A stretch of DNA of 64,000 bases from an archaeon (GTDB taxonomy: Archaea; Thermoproteota; Nitrososphaeria; Nitrososphaerales; Gagatemarchaeaceae). This document shows, one piece after another, positions 17,049 through 52,016 of the stretch. Both the position numbers and the translations under genes were made by a program. Below the pieces are notes generated by a model. The model was not told the DNA's origin. It saw nothing but the letters and a program-made list of their open reading frames with translations, and made no database searches. The first letter of the stretch is position 1. Each line of letters begins with the position of its first letter. The stretch is from contig JAJYWC010000004.1 in the NCBI GenBank assembly GCA_021791695.1, forward strand, positions 1-64,000, in the 5' to 3' direction.

Positions 17049-17136
17049 AGGTGGGAGTGGGAATCGAACCCACTTGAATGCGCTCGCTGCGACGAGGTCC
17101 CTGCAGGCGCACGCGTAGCCACTCCGCCATCCCACC
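17049..17136 (-). tRNA. tRNA-Cys(GCA) with a 16-nt canonical intron
   Basis: Minus-strand cloverleaf. Acceptor GGTGGGA/TCCCACC, D-stem GCG/CGC, anticodon stem TGCGC/GCGCA, variable loop TTCAA, T-arm GTGGG-TTCGATT-CCCAC, discriminator U (typical of tRNA-Cys); mature length 72 nt. The spliced anticodon loop is CTGCAGA (GCA). The intron at 17085-17100 sits between positions 37 and 38 and forms a full bulge-helix-bulge: central helix CTGC/GCAG, 3-nt bulges AGG and CGA, and an inner GAC/GTC hairpin. The CysS gene lies 2.4 kb away. Confidence 0.9.
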
Positions 17137-45056: not shown

Positions 45057-45146
45057 GGGCCGGTCGTCTAGCCTGGTCAGGACGTCAGAGCGATCCGTCA
45101 AGCTCTCACACAGCGAAGGTCGGTGGTTCAAATCCGCCCCGGCCCA
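45057..45146 (+). tRNA. tRNA-Val(CAC) with a 15-nt intron at noncanonical position 28/29
   Basis: Acceptor GGGCCGG/CCGGCCC, D-arm GTC..GAC, T-arm GGTGG-TTCAAAT-CCGCC, variable loop AGGTC, discriminator A. As written, the anticodon stem cannot form. Removing AGAGCGATCCGTCAA (45087-45101) joins TC to GCT and gives stem TCGCT/AGCGA around CTCACAC, anticodon CAC, with a 75-nt mature length. The junctions form a bulge-helix-bulge: central helix GACG/CGTC, bulges TCA and AAG, GCGA tetraloop inside. TATA ACATTAAATCC is ~28 nt upstream. An integrase follows. Confidence 0.88.
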
Positions 45147-45411
45147 CCTTATACTATCAAGAGAATCCTGTGTCTATTTGTCCTTCCAATAGCGCGCTAC
45201 ATCCCTTGGGAGCAAGTACACATACATTCTCGATTATCAGGACGCCCGCAGAGGGCATGAGAACCTCGAAGCCGGGTCCGTCATAACCGCGACGTTCTTC
45301 CTGGGGACGCTGGGGCTGTATTCCGACCTCGCAAAGACTACGCCGAGGGAGATACTGGAGGAAGCGCGATCAAAGAGGTTCAGGGACGAGTTTACGGGCT
45401 TTGTCAGGAGG

Positions 45412-46488
45412 ATGGAGAAGGACGGGAAGGCAGGCTCCTACATCGAGCGATTCAGGAAGGTCATTCTCTCGTGGACTTCCTACAACAACCTCGACGTGAA
45501 GCTGAAGGTCAACATCAAGGGCAGTTCGGATACCCCGACGATAGCCAGCGAAAGGGTCCCGAGCAAGGACGAGCTATCAAGAATACTCAGGATGGCGTCA
45601 CCCAGAGGAAGAGCCTCTGTCGCCCTGATGGCGTTCAGCGGTCTCAGGCCTGAGAGCCCCGGCGACTATCTCGGGACGGATGGGATACGATTGGGAGATT
45701 TCGCCGAGGCGAAGATAAGAGACGACGGAATCGAGTTCGAGAATGTCCCTACGATTCTGCTCGTGCGGCGGGCGCTGAGCAAGGCGAGGCACCCCTACTT
45801 CGCGTTCGTCAGCGGCGAGGCAATCACCTACATCCAAGAACACATTCAGGAGAGGGTCAAGCAGGGAGAGAAACTGACCGCCGAGAGCGCGCTCCTCGCG
45901 TTCGACCCGAGAGGCGTCAGGAAGAACCAGTTCCTGAGGACAACCCTCGTAACGAGAGACGTGAAGGAAGCGATTCTCAAGGCAGGTTTCGCACGGAGAC
46001 CCTATGTCCTCAGGGCCTACTGCGATACCAACATGATCGTTGCGGAATCGAAGGGCTTCATCTCGCACCCTTACCTCCAGTTCCTGATGGGGCACAAAGG
46101 AGATATCGAGGCCAGGTATTCGACGAACAAAGGGCGTCTTCCTCCAACGATGATCGAGGAGATGAGGGAAGCCTACAAGAAGTGCGACTCTCTCCTCTCC
46201 ACAAAGGCGGAGTCAGCCACCGAGAAGCAGATCAGTAAGGCGTTTAACGAGCGGTTTCTCGTCGTTGCAGGATTTAAGAAAGAAGAGCTTGAGAAGATGA
46301 ATCTCGACGATATGACGAATGAGGAACTTCAGAGCCTCGTAAGGCAGCGGCTCGTTGGGATGATGAACAGCAACGGGTCGAGGCAGAAGGTCATACCCGT
46401 TAAGGAGGTCAAGTCATACATCAGCCAGGGCTTCGAATATGTGGCGTCGCTATCGGACGGGGAAGCGATAATGAAGCTCCCGTTCTAA
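45412..46488 (+). CDS. Tyrosine recombinase/integrase, 5' end unclear
   Basis: 358 residues from the first ATG. Catalytic set: R79 in SGLRPESP, a probable Lys in SKARHPYF, R201 in YVLRAYCDT, H228 in FLMGHKGD, and nucleophile Y236 in ARYSTNK. The frame stays open upstream to a TAG at 45188 and reads core-binding-domain-like sequence (TATFFLGTLGLYSDLAKTTP, REILEEARSKRFRDEFTGF), but with no ATG, GTG or TTG. So the visible gene starts inside its N-terminal domain: it is either truncated by integration, decayed, or uses a rare start. Confidence 0.85.
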   Translation: MEKDGKAGSYIERFRKVILSWTSYNNLDVKLKVNIKGSSDTPTIASERVPSKDELSRILRMASPRGRASVALMAFSGLRPESPGDYLGTDGIRLGDFAEAKIRDDGIEFENVPTILLVRRALSKARHPYFAFVSGEAITYIQEHIQERVKQGEKLTAESALLAFDPRGVRKNQFLRTTLVTRDVKEAILKAGFARRPYVLRAYCDTNMIVAESKGFISHPYLQFLMGHKGDIEARYSTNKGRLPPTMIEEMREAYKKCDSLLSTKAESATEKQISKAFNERFLVVAGFKKEELEKMNLDDMTNEELQSLVRQRLVGMMNSNGSRQKVIPVKEVKSYISQGFEYVASLSDGEAIMKLPF

Positions 46489-46491
46489 AGC

Positions 46492-46518
46492 GCTCATCAG
46501 TGTCTATTTGAGATGAGC
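46492..46518. terminator. Inverted repeat between integrase and DUF2283 gene
   Basis: GCTCATC (46492-46498) pairs with GATGAGC (46512-46518) across a 13-nt loop, exactly between the two convergent stops. It may act as a two-way terminator; no T-run follows, and it overlaps the end of the DUF2283 gene. Confidence 0.3.
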
Positions 46519-46698
46519 CTTCAGACCCACGATCGTAATGCCTACGAGCTCACCCTTCCTGGTCCTCATCACAACACCCTCCTGCGGCTCGATTGAGTCG
46601 TCCGCCTCCTTCGGCTTGCCAACCGAGATATAGAGGATGTCGCTCTTCTCGTCATAGTCTATATCCAGTTTCTCAGGCTTCACGACTAGGCTTTCCAT
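46504..46698 (-). CDS. DUF2283-family small protein (antitoxin-like)
   Basis: 64 residues. IDYDEKSDILYISVGKPKEA, then GVVMRTRKGELVGITIVGLK follows the DUF2283 layout (YDxxxDxLYI...G..x..GxxVGIxI). Its start overlaps the end of the upstream nuclease-like gene by 13 nt, an arrangement typical of toxin-antitoxin pairs, where DUF2283 proteins often occur second. Confidence 0.75.
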   Translation of the reverse strand: MESLVVKPEKLDIDYDEKSDILYISVGKPKEADDSIEPQEGVVMRTRKGELVGITIVGLKAHLK

Positions 46699-46967
46699 AT
46701 TGGCTCACCCTTGATTCTCTTCAAATCTGAAGTGAAGTAAGCAGTTATTATAGCCTTCTGGCCGCTCGCCTTTTCCCTGTATACAACGACGAGATACTTC
46801 GGCCCGAGATGCGTCTCCTTCACGTATCGGACTGCCTTTCTCTCCTCCCGGTTACCCTTCAGGATGAATTCGGGGTTCGCCAGAACGTCTTTGATCAACT
46901 CTTCATATCGCGAAACCTCGGGATGTCTATCGCGGATGTGCTTCCTGGCTTCTTCAGACAGTGTCAA
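46686..46967 (-). CDS. RelE/barnase-like (DUF4258/PBECR-type) putative toxin
   Basis: 93 residues. LSEEARKHIRDRHPEVSRYE, LANPEFILKGNREERKAVRY, LGPKYLVVVYREKASGQKAI, ITAYFTSDLKRIKGEPIW. The H-x3-RHPE start, nPd-like loop and terminal ITAY strand resemble small nuclease toxins of the DUF4258/phage-barnase group. Coupled to DUF2283. Activity is inferred from family likeness. Confidence 0.65.
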   Translation of the reverse strand: MTLSEEARKHIRDRHPEVSRYEELIKDVLANPEFILKGNREERKAVRYVKETHLGPKYLVVVYREKASGQKAIITAYFTSDLKRIKGEPIWKA

Positions 46968-46992
46968 GGGTGCTTATCATAGCCCCTGGTTG

Positions 46993-47559
46993 TCATCCGG
47001 CATTTTGCCTAGGCCTCTCTTTTGCGGCGGATTCCTTCCTTCCAAACTCTTCCTTGGCCTGTTGGAACGCGCTCTTCCTGTCACTTATCACAACGAAGGA
47101 ACTTTCGTCATTGACCTCCTCTCCTTCTTCCGTCGATTCATGGCTCTCAGTCTGAGCGATGAAGTGCTTGGTCCAAGAAGCTGAGGAGAGTCCAAAATCC
47201 AGCAGCACGGCGGTCTTGGGAAGCGCTAGGGCCCTCAAATACTCTTCATAGACTCGCTTTTTCTTCCCCTTGAACAGGGTTGCCCTCAACTTTCCAAGCT
47301 GCTCTGTGGTCACTGCTCCGAGTTCGTCGTCTGCTTTGGGAAAATCCTTGTGACGCTTCTCCAGCTCCTCTTCCGTGATGTGATACCTGATCAAAAGCCA
47401 GTCTATGCCATGCGAGTTCTCGACTATGTCCATAGGGTCAACGAGGTTGTAAGAGCCCTGGTAAGGATGTCCGTTCGATGTAGCCGGCGCCCATCTCTTC
47501 AACTGGCAACGGAATAAGAGCAGATACGTTGCAAGCGCCTTTTCATAGCGCTTCACCAC
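46993..47559 (-). CDS. Unrecognised island protein A
   Basis: 188 residues. MVKRYEKALATYLLLFRCQL, IVENSHGIDWLLIRYHITEE, LGKLRATLFKGKKKRVYEEY, then a charged, low-complexity C-terminal tail (HESTEEGEEVNDESSFVVIS ... GRKESAAKERPRQNAG). Mostly helical, soluble. I know no family. It is directly downstream (30 nt) of island protein B on the same strand, so the two may be one transcript. Confidence 0.55.
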   Translation of the reverse strand: MVKRYEKALATYLLLFRCQLKRWAPATSNGHPYQGSYNLVDPMDIVENSHGIDWLLIRYHITEEELEKRHKDFPKADDELGAVTTEQLGKLRATLFKGKKKRVYEEYLRALALPKTAVLLDFGLSSASWTKHFIAQTESHESTEEGEEVNDESSFVVISDRKSAFQQAKEEFGRKESAAKERPRQNAG

Positions 47560-47589
47560 GTTAAGATGCTTAACGTTGTGATTCTGCCA

Positions 47590-48180
47590 TCAGTAATCCA
47601 GCCATGCAGAGACAATGCACTGCGCCGCATCCAAAAGCTTTCTCCCAAGATCCTCGTTCTTTCTGAGGCTGCTCAACGGAGAGTTTGCGCCGGTCGCCAG
47701 GGCGGCCGATGGATATATGCCGCTAGTCGCAAAGGGCGGGGCGACAACGGAAAGAGGCGTCAATGCAGTTTCCTTGGAGAGCAAGAATTCAGCCATATCG
47801 TTTCGGAAGGCGGCTTCGGCAGAGATCGCCGTTGATTTGTACAACGCATGCGCCCCGTTCATCTTGCCTATGGCGTCTTTGTAGATGAATCCCTTCGCTT
47901 GAAGGCTCTTGAGAGCGTCGGCAAGACCTTGGTGCGACAATCTGTCTCCCAGACCCTTCGCAAGTTCCCTGTTTGACACGCCAATGCTCCCGGACTTGAG
48001 AATGTCCCTGAGAACTATGAACTCAGACCGTGAGTTTCGTGGGTGCTGAACGCTTCTCCCACTATATGACGGTGTGCTTGACTTCGGACTGAGTGGTTCG
48101 TACGGGGGTGGAGGGTTTCTTATCCAGTCCGGCGCTGATACCTTTTCGCAATGCAATGCTGGGTCCCAAACTTGTAACAC
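47590..48180 (-). CDS. Unrecognised island protein B with winged-helix-like part
   Basis: 196 residues from the longest start; the N-terminal ~50 residues (PPPPYEPLSPKSSTPSYSG) run antisense through the G1-peptidase remnant, so the true start is uncertain. FIVLRDILKSGSIGVSNREL then HQGLADALKSLQAKGFIYKD resembles a winged-helix domain. The C-terminal half (FRNDMAEFLLSKETALTPLS ... LGRKLLDAAQCIVSAWLDY) is helical and unfamiliar. TATA-like TCATATAG at ~48060 would fit a shorter protein. Confidence 0.5.
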   Translation of the reverse strand: MLQVWDPALHCEKVSAPDWIRNPPPPYEPLSPKSSTPSYSGRSVQHPRNSRSEFIVLRDILKSGSIGVSNRELAKGLGDRLSHQGLADALKSLQAKGFIYKDAIGKMNGAHALYKSTAISAEAAFRNDMAEFLLSKETALTPLSVVAPPFATSGIYPSAALATGANSPLSSLRKNEDLGRKLLDAAQCIVSAWLDY

Positions 48181-48660
48181 TCCAACATACTCAGCATGGT
48201 GGGAGTATTGTTGCAGTTACCCGCCATACTCTTATGGTGGCACATTGTATACATCCGACTATGTAACTCCTCAAGAGGAGAATATGTACTATACTGGAGG
48301 GAGTTTGAATACATACGAGGCAAATTTGATTGATTGGACGCAAAACTGGGTGGGTTGAGCGGAAATCAGAACGTTGGCTCGAGTGCATACTGGGCACAAT
48401 CGGAATTTGAGATCTCATCTCTTGGCACCGCCGCCCTCCCCACGTTCAGCTCGGTCACTCTATCGTCGGTGGACCTCTGCTGGAGCACTACCAATTGCGC
48501 TTTTTGGGGGAACGCTGCGAATATCGTGATAAATTCACCAGCGGACACGATGGTGAATTACTGTTATCCCACAAGCTCCTATGTCGAGAACATACTTCTT
48601 AGCTCGGTAAGTTCCTCTGGCGATTACACACAGACGTATAATTCGAACTGCGGAACCTGA
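48074..48660 (+). pseudogene. G1 (eqolisin-type) glutamic peptidase remnant, truncated and frameshifted
   Basis: Frame 1 (48074-48358) reads FGLSGSYGGGGFLIQSGADT, then PTYSAWWEYCCSYPP, then YVTPQEENMYYTGG and YEANLIDWTQNWVG. This follows the G1 peptidase pattern WxGLDG...QxG...Y.AWYEMYP...V.PGD. Frame 3 (from ~48346) continues LSGNQNVGSSAYWAQSEFE then LPTFSSVTLSS, like the second half with the AEWIxE and LP.F.xVxF regions. The signal peptide and start are missing and a -1 shift near 48350 breaks it. G1 peptidases are secreted acid proteases. Confidence 0.55.
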
Positions 48661-48749
48661 CCATGCTATCTTCTGATCAGGTGCGAACGGATGACTAGAC
48701 CGATTCGGACAAAACGATAAAGCGGTGAGGGTCCAAACAAGCTCTGGCC

Positions 48750-49667
48750 ATGATTCCTCGGAGGCGTGGGGGTGGAACTGCAATTATCCTTATTGTCATG
48801 GCGGCAGTCATTATGACGGGGATGGGCTCACTCGAATCCAGGTCGACGCCTCAGGCAGCATCGACCGCTTCGAGCACGACTGCCGAAACGCTCTAAGGAC
48901 TAGGACTTAATGCGTCCATCAGTGCCACAGGTATCCTCGTCGGACAGAACATCACTGTCAGCATTGCTATTTTCAACACGCTACCTAATGTCAATGATGT
49001 CCCTACCGCTAACGACTGGCAGTTCCAAGGAGTGAACGTTGCACTATGGGGTGGCTGTGTGATTGGATACCCCTTGGAGGTTGCGGTTGTCAGAGGCGAC
49101 TATTCAGTCCAAAACATTTCTTTGGTCGCACGTTCCGTTCTCCAGTATGTCTGCTTCGGGGACATTAACGTCGACCACGTCGTTTTCCAACCTGACAGTG
49201 ACATGGCGAACATTACAGGAACAGGCCCTGCGCCGAACCTCAACCAAACACTGGGGCCGATGTCGCAAAAGCTGAGCTTCTCAACGGACGGCTACTGGAA
49301 CCTCACGAGCCTTGCGCGGGAGCAAGCAATCGACATACCAATCATAGGGCCATCAGATAATCCTGTCCCTGCAACTGTGTTCGTCCCGGGGACCTACACC
49401 GTCGCCGTGGAGGATGAATGGGGGCAAGCTCTGGTACTGCACTTCGTGGTGCAGGGCCCAACACCGAGCACAACCTACTCAAGTTCTAGCTATGCGTCCA
49501 GCACGACTTCGACAAAGACAGGTCTTGCATCGAGCGCGTCTCTCCCTAGTTCATATGCACTGCAATTCGCGATAGCAACAGGAGTGATTCTATTGGCAGC
49601 TTTGGCAGCGACGAGAGCCGGGAACTATCGGATCAGATCGAAGACCTCAATCTTGGGCCAGAACTAG
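48750..49667 (+). pseudogene. Double-anchored surface protein interrupted by one in-frame TAA
   Basis: From ATG 48750: MIPRRRGGGTAIILIVMAAV then IMTGMGSLESRSTPQAASTA, i.e. basic start, membrane anchor, Ser/Thr linker; a TAA stands at 48894-48896. The same frame resumes at once as GLGLNASISATGILVGQNIT and runs to 49667 through an Ig-like domain (PATVFVPGTYTVAVEDEWGQ) and a C-terminal Ser/Thr stretch plus helix LQFAIATGVILLAALAATRA. No start codon lies between the TAA and GTG 49032. One nonsense change in an otherwise intact gene, or readthrough. Confidence 0.6.
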
Positions 49668-49868
49668 CTGTGCTGTACTTACCGAAGGGATTCGCTTAAT
49701 CAATTAATTGCATACCTTCCGGCCCGCTCATTCTCAACCTACTGTCGTCTCCAATCTCCCAGAATGGCCGGGACCGAGGCGCCTGTGCTAGCCTGAGCAG
49801 AGGCAAATCGCTGCAATCGATACGCTCTGGTTAAATGCAGCCTGCACCATTGCAAAAATCGCAATTTC

Positions 49869-50681
49869 TTGAAGATAATCCAGGCCTTCCCAAAAATCAT
49901 GCAGACGCAGTATCCAACTGTCAAAGCAGGGTATCCTCTGCTCACCATACTCTACCTCCTCCGGATGACTGACGTCGACGCCGTTCCCATTCTGCCCCTG
50001 GCTGAGAAGGGTTCGAGGGCGGTCTTCGGTTTCTCCAGTCTGCAACTCTTCATGAAGCTGAGCCCCCGGCACTTCGGAGAGGTCCTCAGGGGCCCATGCG
50101 AGGCGGCCTCCGACGAACTGCCGGTTGTGAGCGCCGGGGCCGAGCTGGAGTCGCTCTTCGAGGCGTTCAGGTCGCGACAGCTGGGTTTCGCAATCGTCCA
50201 TGACGGCACCCGGACGTCCAGACCGGGACTCATCGGTCTCTGGGATGTGCTGAGGCTCTACGGCACTGGGGCTCTTCGCACGGAGCTGAGGACTGAGGAC
50301 CTTGGGACAAAGATTCTCATCACTTCCGGCGCGATTACCATAAGGGATGCGCTTCGGACCATGTTTCGAAGCAGGCACCGACGAATATTCCTGCCGGGAG
50401 GCCGTTCGTACGTCTCGGACCGGAGCGTCATGAACTATCTCTTCAGCCCAACCGTCCTCGAGGAGATTGGACGCGACGGGGGAAGGGACGCTCTCGCGAC
50501 TCCGATAACACAGCTCCATGCCTCCGCCCCAATCGCGGTCAGCCAGAGGATGCCTGCGAGGAGCGCCGCTTTGAACCTGAGGAAAGACAGGGGAGGCTGC
50601 CTTGTGGCCGGCAGAAAGGTCGTTACGGCCTGGGACGTAGTTATGAAGCCTTGGCTGACCGGGAAACTGACGATCGCCTAG
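49869..50681 (+). CDS. Four-CBS-domain-like regulatory protein
   Basis: 270 residues from TTG 49869 (or 260 from ATG 49899); TATA GTTAAATGC lies ~35 nt before the TTG. Four CBS-like repeats: TILYLLRMTDVDAVPILPLA; FEAFRSRQLGFAIVHDGTRT then GLIGLWDVLRLYG; ALRTMFRSRHRRIFLPGGRS; RGGCLVAGRKVVTAWDVVMK. CBS pairs bind adenine nucleotides. Sets of stand-alone CBS proteins are frequent in Thaumarchaeota. Stop shared as CTAG with a convergent gene. Confidence 0.75.
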   Translation: MKIIQAFPKIMQTQYPTVKAGYPLLTILYLLRMTDVDAVPILPLAEKGSRAVFGFSSLQLFMKLSPRHFGEVLRGPCEAASDELPVVSAGAELESLFEAFRSRQLGFAIVHDGTRTSRPGLIGLWDVLRLYGTGALRTELRTEDLGTKILITSGAITIRDALRTMFRSRHRRIFLPGGRSYVSDRSVMNYLFSPTVLEEIGRDGGRDALATPITQLHASAPIAVSQRMPARSAALNLRKDRGGCLVAGRKVVTAWDVVMKPWLTGKLTIA

Positions 50682-51016
50682 GCCTGCCAACCCGAAGGAG
50701 GTGAGCCGACTCCGGTGTGACCCGTCGACTCGGCGTGGGAAATGACAACGAACATCGCGGAGTTGTAGACCATACTCGCCAGACCTGCGACCGCTATGAT
50801 GACAAGAATCAGAGCGCCGATGTCGTTGTTCACCCACAAGAATGCGAACTGGACAGAACGCGGCAGGAGGTCTGCCCGCTGCGTGAAATCGAACGGAAAG
50901 ACCGCCAGGAACCAGAAGGTCGCAACCGCCATCAATCCGTCCCGGAGCGCTTGGAGCGGTCTGACCGCGTTCTTCCTACCGTAAGCGGCGCGGGCTAGAC
51001 TCACTGCGAATTCCAC
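50678..51016 (-). CDS. Small multi-helix membrane protein
   Basis: 112 residues from GTG 51016. Helices at GLMAVATFWFLAVFPFDF, SVQFAFLWVNNDIGALILVI and IAVAGLASMVYNSAMFVVIS; polar C-terminal tail. No family recognised. Upstream 51017-51259 contains an open but start-less frame (EAAEQILATETVQVDWKPPA) that may be a gene remnant. Confidence 0.6.
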   Translation of the reverse strand: MEFAVSLARAAYGRKNAVRPLQALRDGLMAVATFWFLAVFPFDFTQRADLLPRSVQFAFLWVNNDIGALILVIIAVAGLASMVYNSAMFVVISHAESTGHTGVGSPPSGWQA

Positions 51017-51259
51017 TAGTCAGGGACCATAGAACAGGAACTGCTCCTCATCGCCAAACTCGCTCGGCTCAGAAATCGATGGGGCCAACAGGGAGGCGGC
51101 GGAACAGATCCTAGCGACGGAGACCGTACAGGTCGACTGGAAGCCACCCGCTAGTGGGCTCGTCGAAATTCTGAAGCTGCTCTACAAGCTAGGAGCTTGG
51201 ACTTTGCCGGTTGGGATCCGCCCTGCTCAGCGGAACCCGGCGGCTCAATCTCGGCCAGC

Positions 51260-51688
51260 CTACGGCACGAGCACTACGGGCAAGTCCGAGTTCTCCACCA
51301 CCCGCCTGGCAACGCTTCCCAGCGACCTTATGCGGGACAGGTGGTGCAGTCCGAAAACGCCGAGCACGATCATCGTGGCTCGTTTGCTCTTGGCGATGCT
51401 TAGGATCAGTTCGGCGGGATTACCCACGGCCGACGCAGTCTCGAATTTTACGCCCTTTACGCGGTCGGCCATGTTCTCAAGAACGCCGCGGGAGATCTCC
51501 TCGGAGTAGCCTCCCGGGGCCACGCCTTCCTCCTTCGCGTATTCACTGTATCCCTCGGGAACCGGCATATCGGGGGTGACGTTGACAAGAAGAAGACTAC
51601 CGTTGATGGACTCGGCGAGCTGGACCGCAAAGTCGACCACTCTGGGAGAGTGTTTTGAACCGTCGATCGCCACGAGAATCTTGTCCAT
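51260..51688 (-). CDS. Universal stress protein (UspA family)
   Basis: 142 residues from ATG 51688. ILVAIDGSKHSPRVVDFAVQ, LLLVNVTPD, VGNPAELILSIAKSKRATMI, and the nucleotide loop GVFGLHHLSRIRSLGSVARR, which has ten rather than nine residues between the glycines (G-x2-G-x10-GS). Ends VVENSDLPVVLVP. TATA 27 nt upstream gives a leaderless transcript. Confidence 0.93.
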   Translation of the reverse strand: MDKILVAIDGSKHSPRVVDFAVQLAESINGSLLLVNVTPDMPVPEGYSEYAKEEGVAPGGYSEEISRGVLENMADRVKGVKFETASAVGNPAELILSIAKSKRATMIVLGVFGLHHLSRIRSLGSVARRVVENSDLPVVLVP

Positions 51689-51710
51689 GGCAGAATCGAG
51701 GCGAGCCAGC

Positions 51711-51719
51711 ATATTTAAT
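51711..51719 (-). promoter_or_regulatory. TATA box of the UspA gene
   Basis: ATTAAATAT on the minus strand, centred 27 nt before ATG 51688; supports that start over an in-frame ATG at 51712 that would lie inside the box. Confidence 0.55.
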
Positions 51720-52016
51720 CCGATGGCCGATTCTCACATCTGACAATCGTACGCTGCTCGGACCTCGCGCGGAGTGCACCCAGGATGACTGTGATGCCGC
51801 TGACTTCTTGCAGCAAGGAGCCGACAGTCGGGAAGCATGTAATCAAGCCTTGCGATAGACATCAGGACGAAGCTGGCAACTAGGCCGAAGAAGATGCTTC
51901 CTTTGCTATCCTCTGCGCGTGCTGTCCGTCTCACAACTTTGGAGACGGCTTCGTGCAGGTTCTGTAGAGACGAAGCTCGTCCCGCCCTCGTCGCATTAGC
52001 GTGGCCCTGCCTGGAG
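51720..52016. other. Stretch without a supported gene
   Basis: About 300 nt. On the minus strand a frame at 51734-51934 encodes a 66-residue peptide with one hydrophobic stretch (GSIFFGLVASFVLMSIARLD) but lacks promoter or conserved look; it is not called. Otherwise nothing recognisable. Confidence 0.3.

What the first reader, a model, noticed from the sequence alone, without database searches (positions are those of the whole stretch)
45057..45146. tRNA-Val with a 15-nt intron inside the anticodon stem (28/29)
Deleting AGAGCGATCCGTCAA restores a 5-bp stem and a CAC anticodon loop; junctions fit a bulge-helix-bulge with central GACG/CGTC helix. Noncanonical intron positions are known in some Crenarchaeota and Thaumarchaeota but are scarce, and this one coincides with an integrase neighbour. 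Introns may protect tRNA genes from, or result from, element integration.
Basis: seen in the sequence. Interest (0 to 1): 0.6.

Follow-up and report, generated by a model that had tools for sequence, protein, structure and literature searches.

The report
Conserved noncanonical intron in tRNA-Val
A soil archaeon's valine tRNA gene is interrupted by a 15-base intron inside the anticodon stem; relatives keep the same intron with compensating base changes, so it is real, probably spliced by a known enzyme type, and unrelated to the neighbouring integrase.

Summary
Window 45057-45146 (+) is a tRNA-Val(CAC) gene with a 15-nt insertion, AGAGCGATCCGTCAA (45087-45101), between nucleotides 28 and 29. 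Removing it gives a sequence with 4 mismatches in 77 to an intronless tRNA-Val(CAC) of another family. The source is a Nitrososphaerales MAG, most likely Gagatemarchaeaceae (group I.1c). The same site is occupied in 34 tRNA-Val genes of 26 genomes (three families, all three Val isoacceptors). The introns differ in sequence but keep a bulge-helix-bulge: the inner helix forms 77 of 87 possible pairs, against 53.4 +/- 3.3 when strands are re-dealt (0 of 10,000). The genome has a catalytic and a His-less EndA paralogue (alpha2beta2 type, with the crenarchaeal-loop lysine) and an RtcB ligase. The link to the integrase is not supported. The orthologous locus of Ca. Gagatemarchaeum stordalenia has the identical intron and no integrase. 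The integrase family often sits 3' of tRNA genes, mostly without this intron. A ~16-bp repeat in this genome places its target at the tRNA 3' end, outside the intron. The window's integrase has lost its start codon. This is a well-conserved new member of a known kind, noncanonical BHB tRNA introns. No RNA data were available.

The parts
45057..45146 (+). precursor tRNA-Val(CAC) gene
   Evidence: Rfam RF00005 39.8 bits; spliced form called tRNA-Val(cac) by ARAGORN
45087..45101 (+). 15-nt noncanonical intron AGAGCGATCCGTCAA at position 28/29
   Evidence: comparison with intronless alleles; coordinates
45081..45084 (+). 5' strand of central BHB helix (GACG, tRNA nt 23-26; overlaps the 3' strand of the D stem)
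   Evidence: compensatory GACA/TGTC in G060
45085..45087 (+). 5' bulge TC^A (cut after second nt)
45088..45095 (+). inner hairpin of intron, GA-GCGA-TC
   Evidence: the inner helix covaries among relatives
45096..45099 (+). 3' strand of central BHB helix (CGTC)
45100..45102 (+). 3' bulge AA^G (cut after second nt)
45107..45109 (+). anticodon CAC
45147..45192 (+). element-derived 3' flank (..AAGAGAATCCT..), shared with other integrase-bearing tRNA loci
45193..46488 (+). tyrosine-recombinase (integrase) open frame; homologues' ATG start is ACA here (45199-45201), next in-frame ATG is 45412
45147..51960 (.). approximate extent of DNA absent from the orthologous Gagatemarchaeum stordalenia locus (right edge approximate, no attR recognised)

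Best explanation
The gene encodes a tRNA-Val(CAC) precursor whose anticodon stem is interrupted after nucleotide 28 by a short BHB intron. In the precursor, nt 23-26 (GACG) pair with CGUC near the 3' end of the intron, opening the D stem and leaving 3-nt bulges UC^A and AA^G on opposite strands. The heteromeric (alpha2beta2) splicing endonuclease cuts both bulges and RtcB joins the exons; the D stem and a 5-bp anticodon stem then form. Shown here: gene, borders, conservation and covariation of the BHB, presence of both endonuclease subunits and the ligase. Inferred: the splicing reaction itself. The integrase next door belongs to a degraded element that used the tRNA 3' end as its target, as its relatives do, and has no causal link to the intron.
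For: tRNA and intron. Paralogue tRNA-Val(UAC) in the same genome with an 18-nt intron at the same bond. 34 intron-bearing genes in 26 genomes, families f1, f12 and f13, 31 distinct; inner pair 2 occurs as AT, GC, CG, TA and TG and is paired in all 31; 77/87 inner pairs against 53.4 +/- 3.3 re-dealt, 0 of 10,000; central GACG/CGTC with compensatory GACA/TGTC. EndA paralogues: L028 keeps Tyr/His/Lys and aligns Lys40 to A. pernix Lys44 in the crenarchaeal loop; L029 lacks the His (loop function from PMC6379350). RtcB. Orthologous locus with identical intron and no integrase. Integrase homologues 46-162 bp downstream of tRNA genes at 16 loci, including tRNA-Val genes without the 28/29 intron. ~16-bp repeat of the tRNA 3' end before a sister integrase in this genome.
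Against: No RNA evidence. The BHB of the window copy is weak on its own: two inner pairs, two outer pairs, and not the minimum-energy fold. The BHB excludes the D stem in the precursor. Three of 31 distinct introns have an A.C mismatch in the central helix. Conservation counts are of related sequences, so the shuffle number is not an independent-event probability.
Confidence: 0.93

Rival explanations
1. The insertion is debris or a by-product of the element's integration (intron gained through integrase/att recombination, as proposed for Caldiarchaeum tRNA-Thr).
For: An integrase frame starts 46 bp after the tRNA, and this family targets tRNA-Val among others. The Sugahara 2012 model exists (PMC3293823).
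Against: Identical intron at the orthologous, integrase-free locus. 24 named intron loci searched, none with this integrase in the up to 8 kb held. Integrase next to tRNA-Val genes without a 28/29 intron in G042, G069 and G096. The target repeat is the tRNA 3' end, outside the intron.
Confidence: 0.03
2. The intron protects the tRNA gene from integration.
For: Proposed for Sulfolobus tRNAs by Randau and Soll (cited in PMC4090602).
Against: This very gene carries an integrated element. The tRNA-Val(UAC) paralogue with the same intron also carries the element flank. The intron lies outside the ~16-bp target. Thaumarchaeal elements were already found in 10 intron-containing tRNA genes (PMC6563490).
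Confidence: 0.03
3. The gene is a tRNA pseudogene and another tRNA-Val(CAC) does the work.
For: The assembly is 72% complete, so another copy cannot be excluded.
Against: The spliced product is a complete cloverleaf, nearly identical to intronless genes of relatives. The BHB is under compensatory selection across genomes. One gene per Val anticodon was found in the held genome.
Confidence: 0.04

Closest known systems
Noncanonical BHB introns of archaeal tRNAs (Thermoproteales, Thaumarchaeota)
   Same: Short intron, BHB at both borders, cut after the second bulge nucleotide, alpha2beta2 endonuclease, sometimes several introns per gene. tRNAscan-SE 2.0 counts 107 noncanonical introns in Thaumarchaeota (PMC8450103).
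   Different: The positions listed in the text of the review PMC4090602 are 20/21, 22/23, 25/26, 29/30, 30/31, 45/46, 53/54, 56/57 and 59/60 'etc.'; 28/29 is not named there, though its figure could not be read. Here one site is shared by all three Val isoacceptors across three families.
Split tRNA-Ala (29/30) and tRNA-Glu (25/26) of Caldivirga, split tRNA-Lys (30/31) of Nanoarchaeum and Staphylothermus
   Same: Disruption in or near the 5' strand of the anticodon stem, resolved by a BHB (PMC4090602, PMC3218864).
   Different: Cis-intron within one gene, not trans-spliced halves.
Integrated elements of Thaumarchaeota using tRNA 3' ends (PMC6563490)
   Same: Tyrosine recombinase beside a tRNA, short att (median 17 bp), intron-containing tRNA genes also used.
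   Different: The window copy has no recognisable attR and its integrase has lost the start codon.

Membership tests
Noncanonical archaeal BHB tRNA intron | tRNA gene interrupted at a site other than 37/38; removal restores a cloverleaf | tested here: met
   insertion after nt 28
Noncanonical archaeal BHB tRNA intron | 4-bp central helix flanked by two 3-nt bulges, cut after the second bulge nucleotide | tested here: met
   GACG/CGTC, TC^A, AA^G; covariation 77/87 against 53.4 +/- 3.3. The cut itself was not tested.
Noncanonical archaeal BHB tRNA intron | host has a broad-specificity splicing endonuclease (alpha2beta2 with specific loop, or epsilon2) | tested here: met
   two EndA paralogues, one catalytic with the loop Lys, one lacking His
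Noncanonical archaeal BHB tRNA intron | spliced RNA observed | not testable with these tools
   no RNA data
Tyrosine-recombinase integrated element in a tRNA gene | tyrosine recombinase with R, K, (H/Y)xxR, H, Y | tested here: met
   invariant R152, K197, Y271-x-x-R274, Y309 and the GHKG motif (His301 is Ala in one homologue) in A1; 2 of 9 relatives match PF00589; profile matches a XerC-like tyrosine recombinase chain, E 3e-7; the window protein alone matches no Pfam family
Tyrosine-recombinase integrated element in a tRNA gene | direct repeat of the tRNA 3' end at the far border | tested here: not met
   none in window or genome at up to 3 mismatches; best local match no better than shuffles. 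A sister copy on C60 does show a ~16-bp repeat
Tyrosine-recombinase integrated element in a tRNA gene | intact integrase start | tested here: not met
   homologues' ATG is ACA in the window

The most novel reading that the evidence does not exclude
The 28/29 introns of the three tRNA-Val isoacceptors are exchanged between paralogues (intron transposition or gene conversion) rather than only inherited. In G011 the UAC and GAC genes carry an identical intron, and introns within one genome are closer (edit distance 0-0.38, mostly below 0.3) than same-isoacceptor introns of different genomes (mean 0.34). This would extend tRNA intron transposition, described for Thermoproteales, to soil Thaumarchaeota.
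Probability: 0.3. Interest if true: 0.5.

Novelty: new member of a known kind. Interest (0 to 1): 0.35.

Why it matters
It gives a clean comparative series (intronless, one-intron and two-intron alleles of the same three tRNA-Val genes) in soil Thaumarchaeota for studying gain, loss and spread of tRNA introns. It argues that, here, introns and integration at tRNA genes are independent. It also shows that tRNA finders without noncanonical-intron models miss or misname such genes (ARAGORN missed it).

Tried and rejected
Search for a second attachment site of the window element: none. Integrase in viral contigs and phage records: no relatives. PHROGs, NCBIfam and single-sequence PDB search of the integrase: uninformative. 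Thermodynamic folding as support for the BHB: unhelpful, alternative hairpins score better. A phylum-wide pattern gave nothing in 299 other genomes, mostly ammonia oxidisers and other classes, but the pattern is tuned to this tRNA-Val sequence, so absence there is weak evidence. Whether 28/29 appears in the figures or tables of Sugahara 2008/2009 could not be checked.

Full report
Observation. Rfam places a tRNA at window 45057-45146 + (39.8 bits). Numbering by the cloverleaf (acceptor GGGCCGG, D stem GTCT/GGAC, G26, T27 C28) puts a 15-nt insertion AGAGCGATCCGTCAA at 45087-45101, before G29-C30-T31 and the loop CTCACAC with anticodon CAC. The spliced sequence is called tRNA-Val(cac) by ARAGORN; the unspliced one is missed, or misread as tRNA-Leu when introns are allowed. 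The spliced sequence has 4 mismatches in 77 to the intronless gene of G049, a different family (L042).

Organism and splicing machinery. The window is contig 45 of a 1.81-Mb, 72%-complete MAG. The family is therefore most likely Gagatemarchaeaceae (group I.1c; PMC10640624). The genome has two EndA paralogues. L028 is closest to an EndA chain recognised as the A. pernix enzyme from its residue numbering and sequence (my own knowledge), keeps Tyr, His and Lys, and has a lysine aligned to Lys44 of the crenarchaea-specific loop; PMC6379350 describes that loop and its Lys as conferring broad specificity. L029 lacks the catalytic His. That is the alpha2beta2 pattern. An RtcB ligase is present.

Conservation. 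A pattern search over 400 genomes of the order plus the similarity search gives 84 tRNA-Val genes that could be parsed. Of these, 34 genes in 26 genomes carry an intron at exactly 28/29, 14 to 21 nt long. They fall in family f1 (CAC 14 of 19, UAC 11 of 26, GAC 3 of 14), f12 and f13; genes of f4, f11, f14, f16 and f17 in the set are intronless there. In this genome the tRNA-Val(UAC) gene on contig 60 carries AGAGCAAGACTCCGTCAA at the same bond. All 31 distinct cases fit one register: central helix GACG/CGTC (GACA/TGTC in G060; G.U in four; A.C mismatch in three), both bulges 3 nt, and an inner helix whose second pair occurs as AT, GC, CG, TA or TG and is always paired. Inner pairs: 77 of 87 against 53.4 +/- 3.3 after re-dealing the 3' strands, 0 of 10,000 reaching it. 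Relatedness inflates such tests, but five pair types at one position are hard to explain otherwise. The borders obey the rule of cutting after the second bulge nucleotide (PMC4307357).

Weak points. In isolation the BHB of this copy is not the lowest-energy fold, and its central helix uses nucleotides 23-26, so it must form instead of the D stem. No RNA data exist here, so splicing is inferred.

The integrase. The open frame 45193-46488 is a tyrosine recombinase by its relatives: invariant R152, K197, YxxR, Y309 and a GHKG motif, PF00589 in 2 of 9 relatives, and a profile match to a XerC-like structure. It alone matches no Pfam family. Two closer copies (85% and 81%) are in the same genome. 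At 16 loci members of this family start 46 to 162 bp after a tRNA gene on the same strand (tRNA-Ile, -Val and others), many with a shared flank resembling TTAAGAGAATCCTTTAT; two loci with ~80% identical copies (L113, L114) showed no tRNA. Upstream of the contig-60 copy, a 16-bp repeat ATCCCTTCCGGCCCAC of the tRNA-Val(UAC) 3' end lies 3.7 kb from that tRNA, which fits published thaumarchaeal att lengths (median 17 bp, PMC6563490). The window copy has ACA where relatives have the ATG start, and no attR was found, so the element looks degraded.

Are intron and integrase linked? No. In G001/L106 the order PAP2 gene, tRNA-Val(CAC) with the identical intron, NikR-like gene (named from its sequence, not from a family search) is collinear with window 42.6-45.1 kb and 52.0-57.0 kb, without the ~6.8 kb that carries the integrase in the window. 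None of the 24 named intron-bearing loci has this integrase in the DNA held. In G042, G069 and G096 the same integrase family sits next to tRNA-Val genes without the 28/29 intron. The target is the tRNA 3' end, so an intron at 28/29 would neither block nor result from it.

Position relative to known cases. The review PMC4090602 lists noncanonical sites 20/21, 22/23, 25/26, 29/30, 30/31 and others; 28/29 is not in that text, but its figure and the original tables were not readable here. I therefore call it a new member of a known kind rather than a new variant.

Verdict.

Noticed in passing
G000:C56:24780-25000 (L142 about 2321-2423): tRNA-Ile(GAU) has a ~22-nt insertion in the D loop (GGGCCGGTAGCTCAG | AACCTCGGCGAGAGGTGGGCAG | CTTGGC), and an integrase 85% identical to the window's follows it directly. 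Rfam trims the true 5' end.
   Followed up: partly
G000:C17:21230-21326 (L013) and G000:C56:23459-23552 (L011): tRNA-Val(GAC) and tRNA-Ala(UGC) carry insertions after about nt 43-44; several relatives' tRNA-Val genes (L035, L047, L054, L106) have both the 28/29 and this second intron.
   Followed up: partly
L049 1439-1545 (G042:C4): tRNA-Val(CAC) of family f7 lacks the 28/29 intron but has a ~31-nt insertion in the D loop; a broken integrase relic and a CRISPR-like repeat array follow it.
   Followed up: no
window 46504-46967 (-): Adjacent small genes in the island: a DUF2283 protein and a PBECR2/RelE-like predicted nuclease, which look like a toxin-antitoxin pair.
   Followed up: no
window 17049-17136 (-): Second tRNA-like hit (46.4 bits in the genome search, ARAGORN 'tRNA-???'), not reported by the default cmscan of the window; unusual anticodon arm.
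   Followed up: no
L143 2700-6600 (G000:C60): tRNA-Val(UAC) is followed by an integrase-like start region, then 3.7 kb later a 16-bp tRNA 3'-end repeat and a complete integrase: possible tandem or nested elements.
   Followed up: partly
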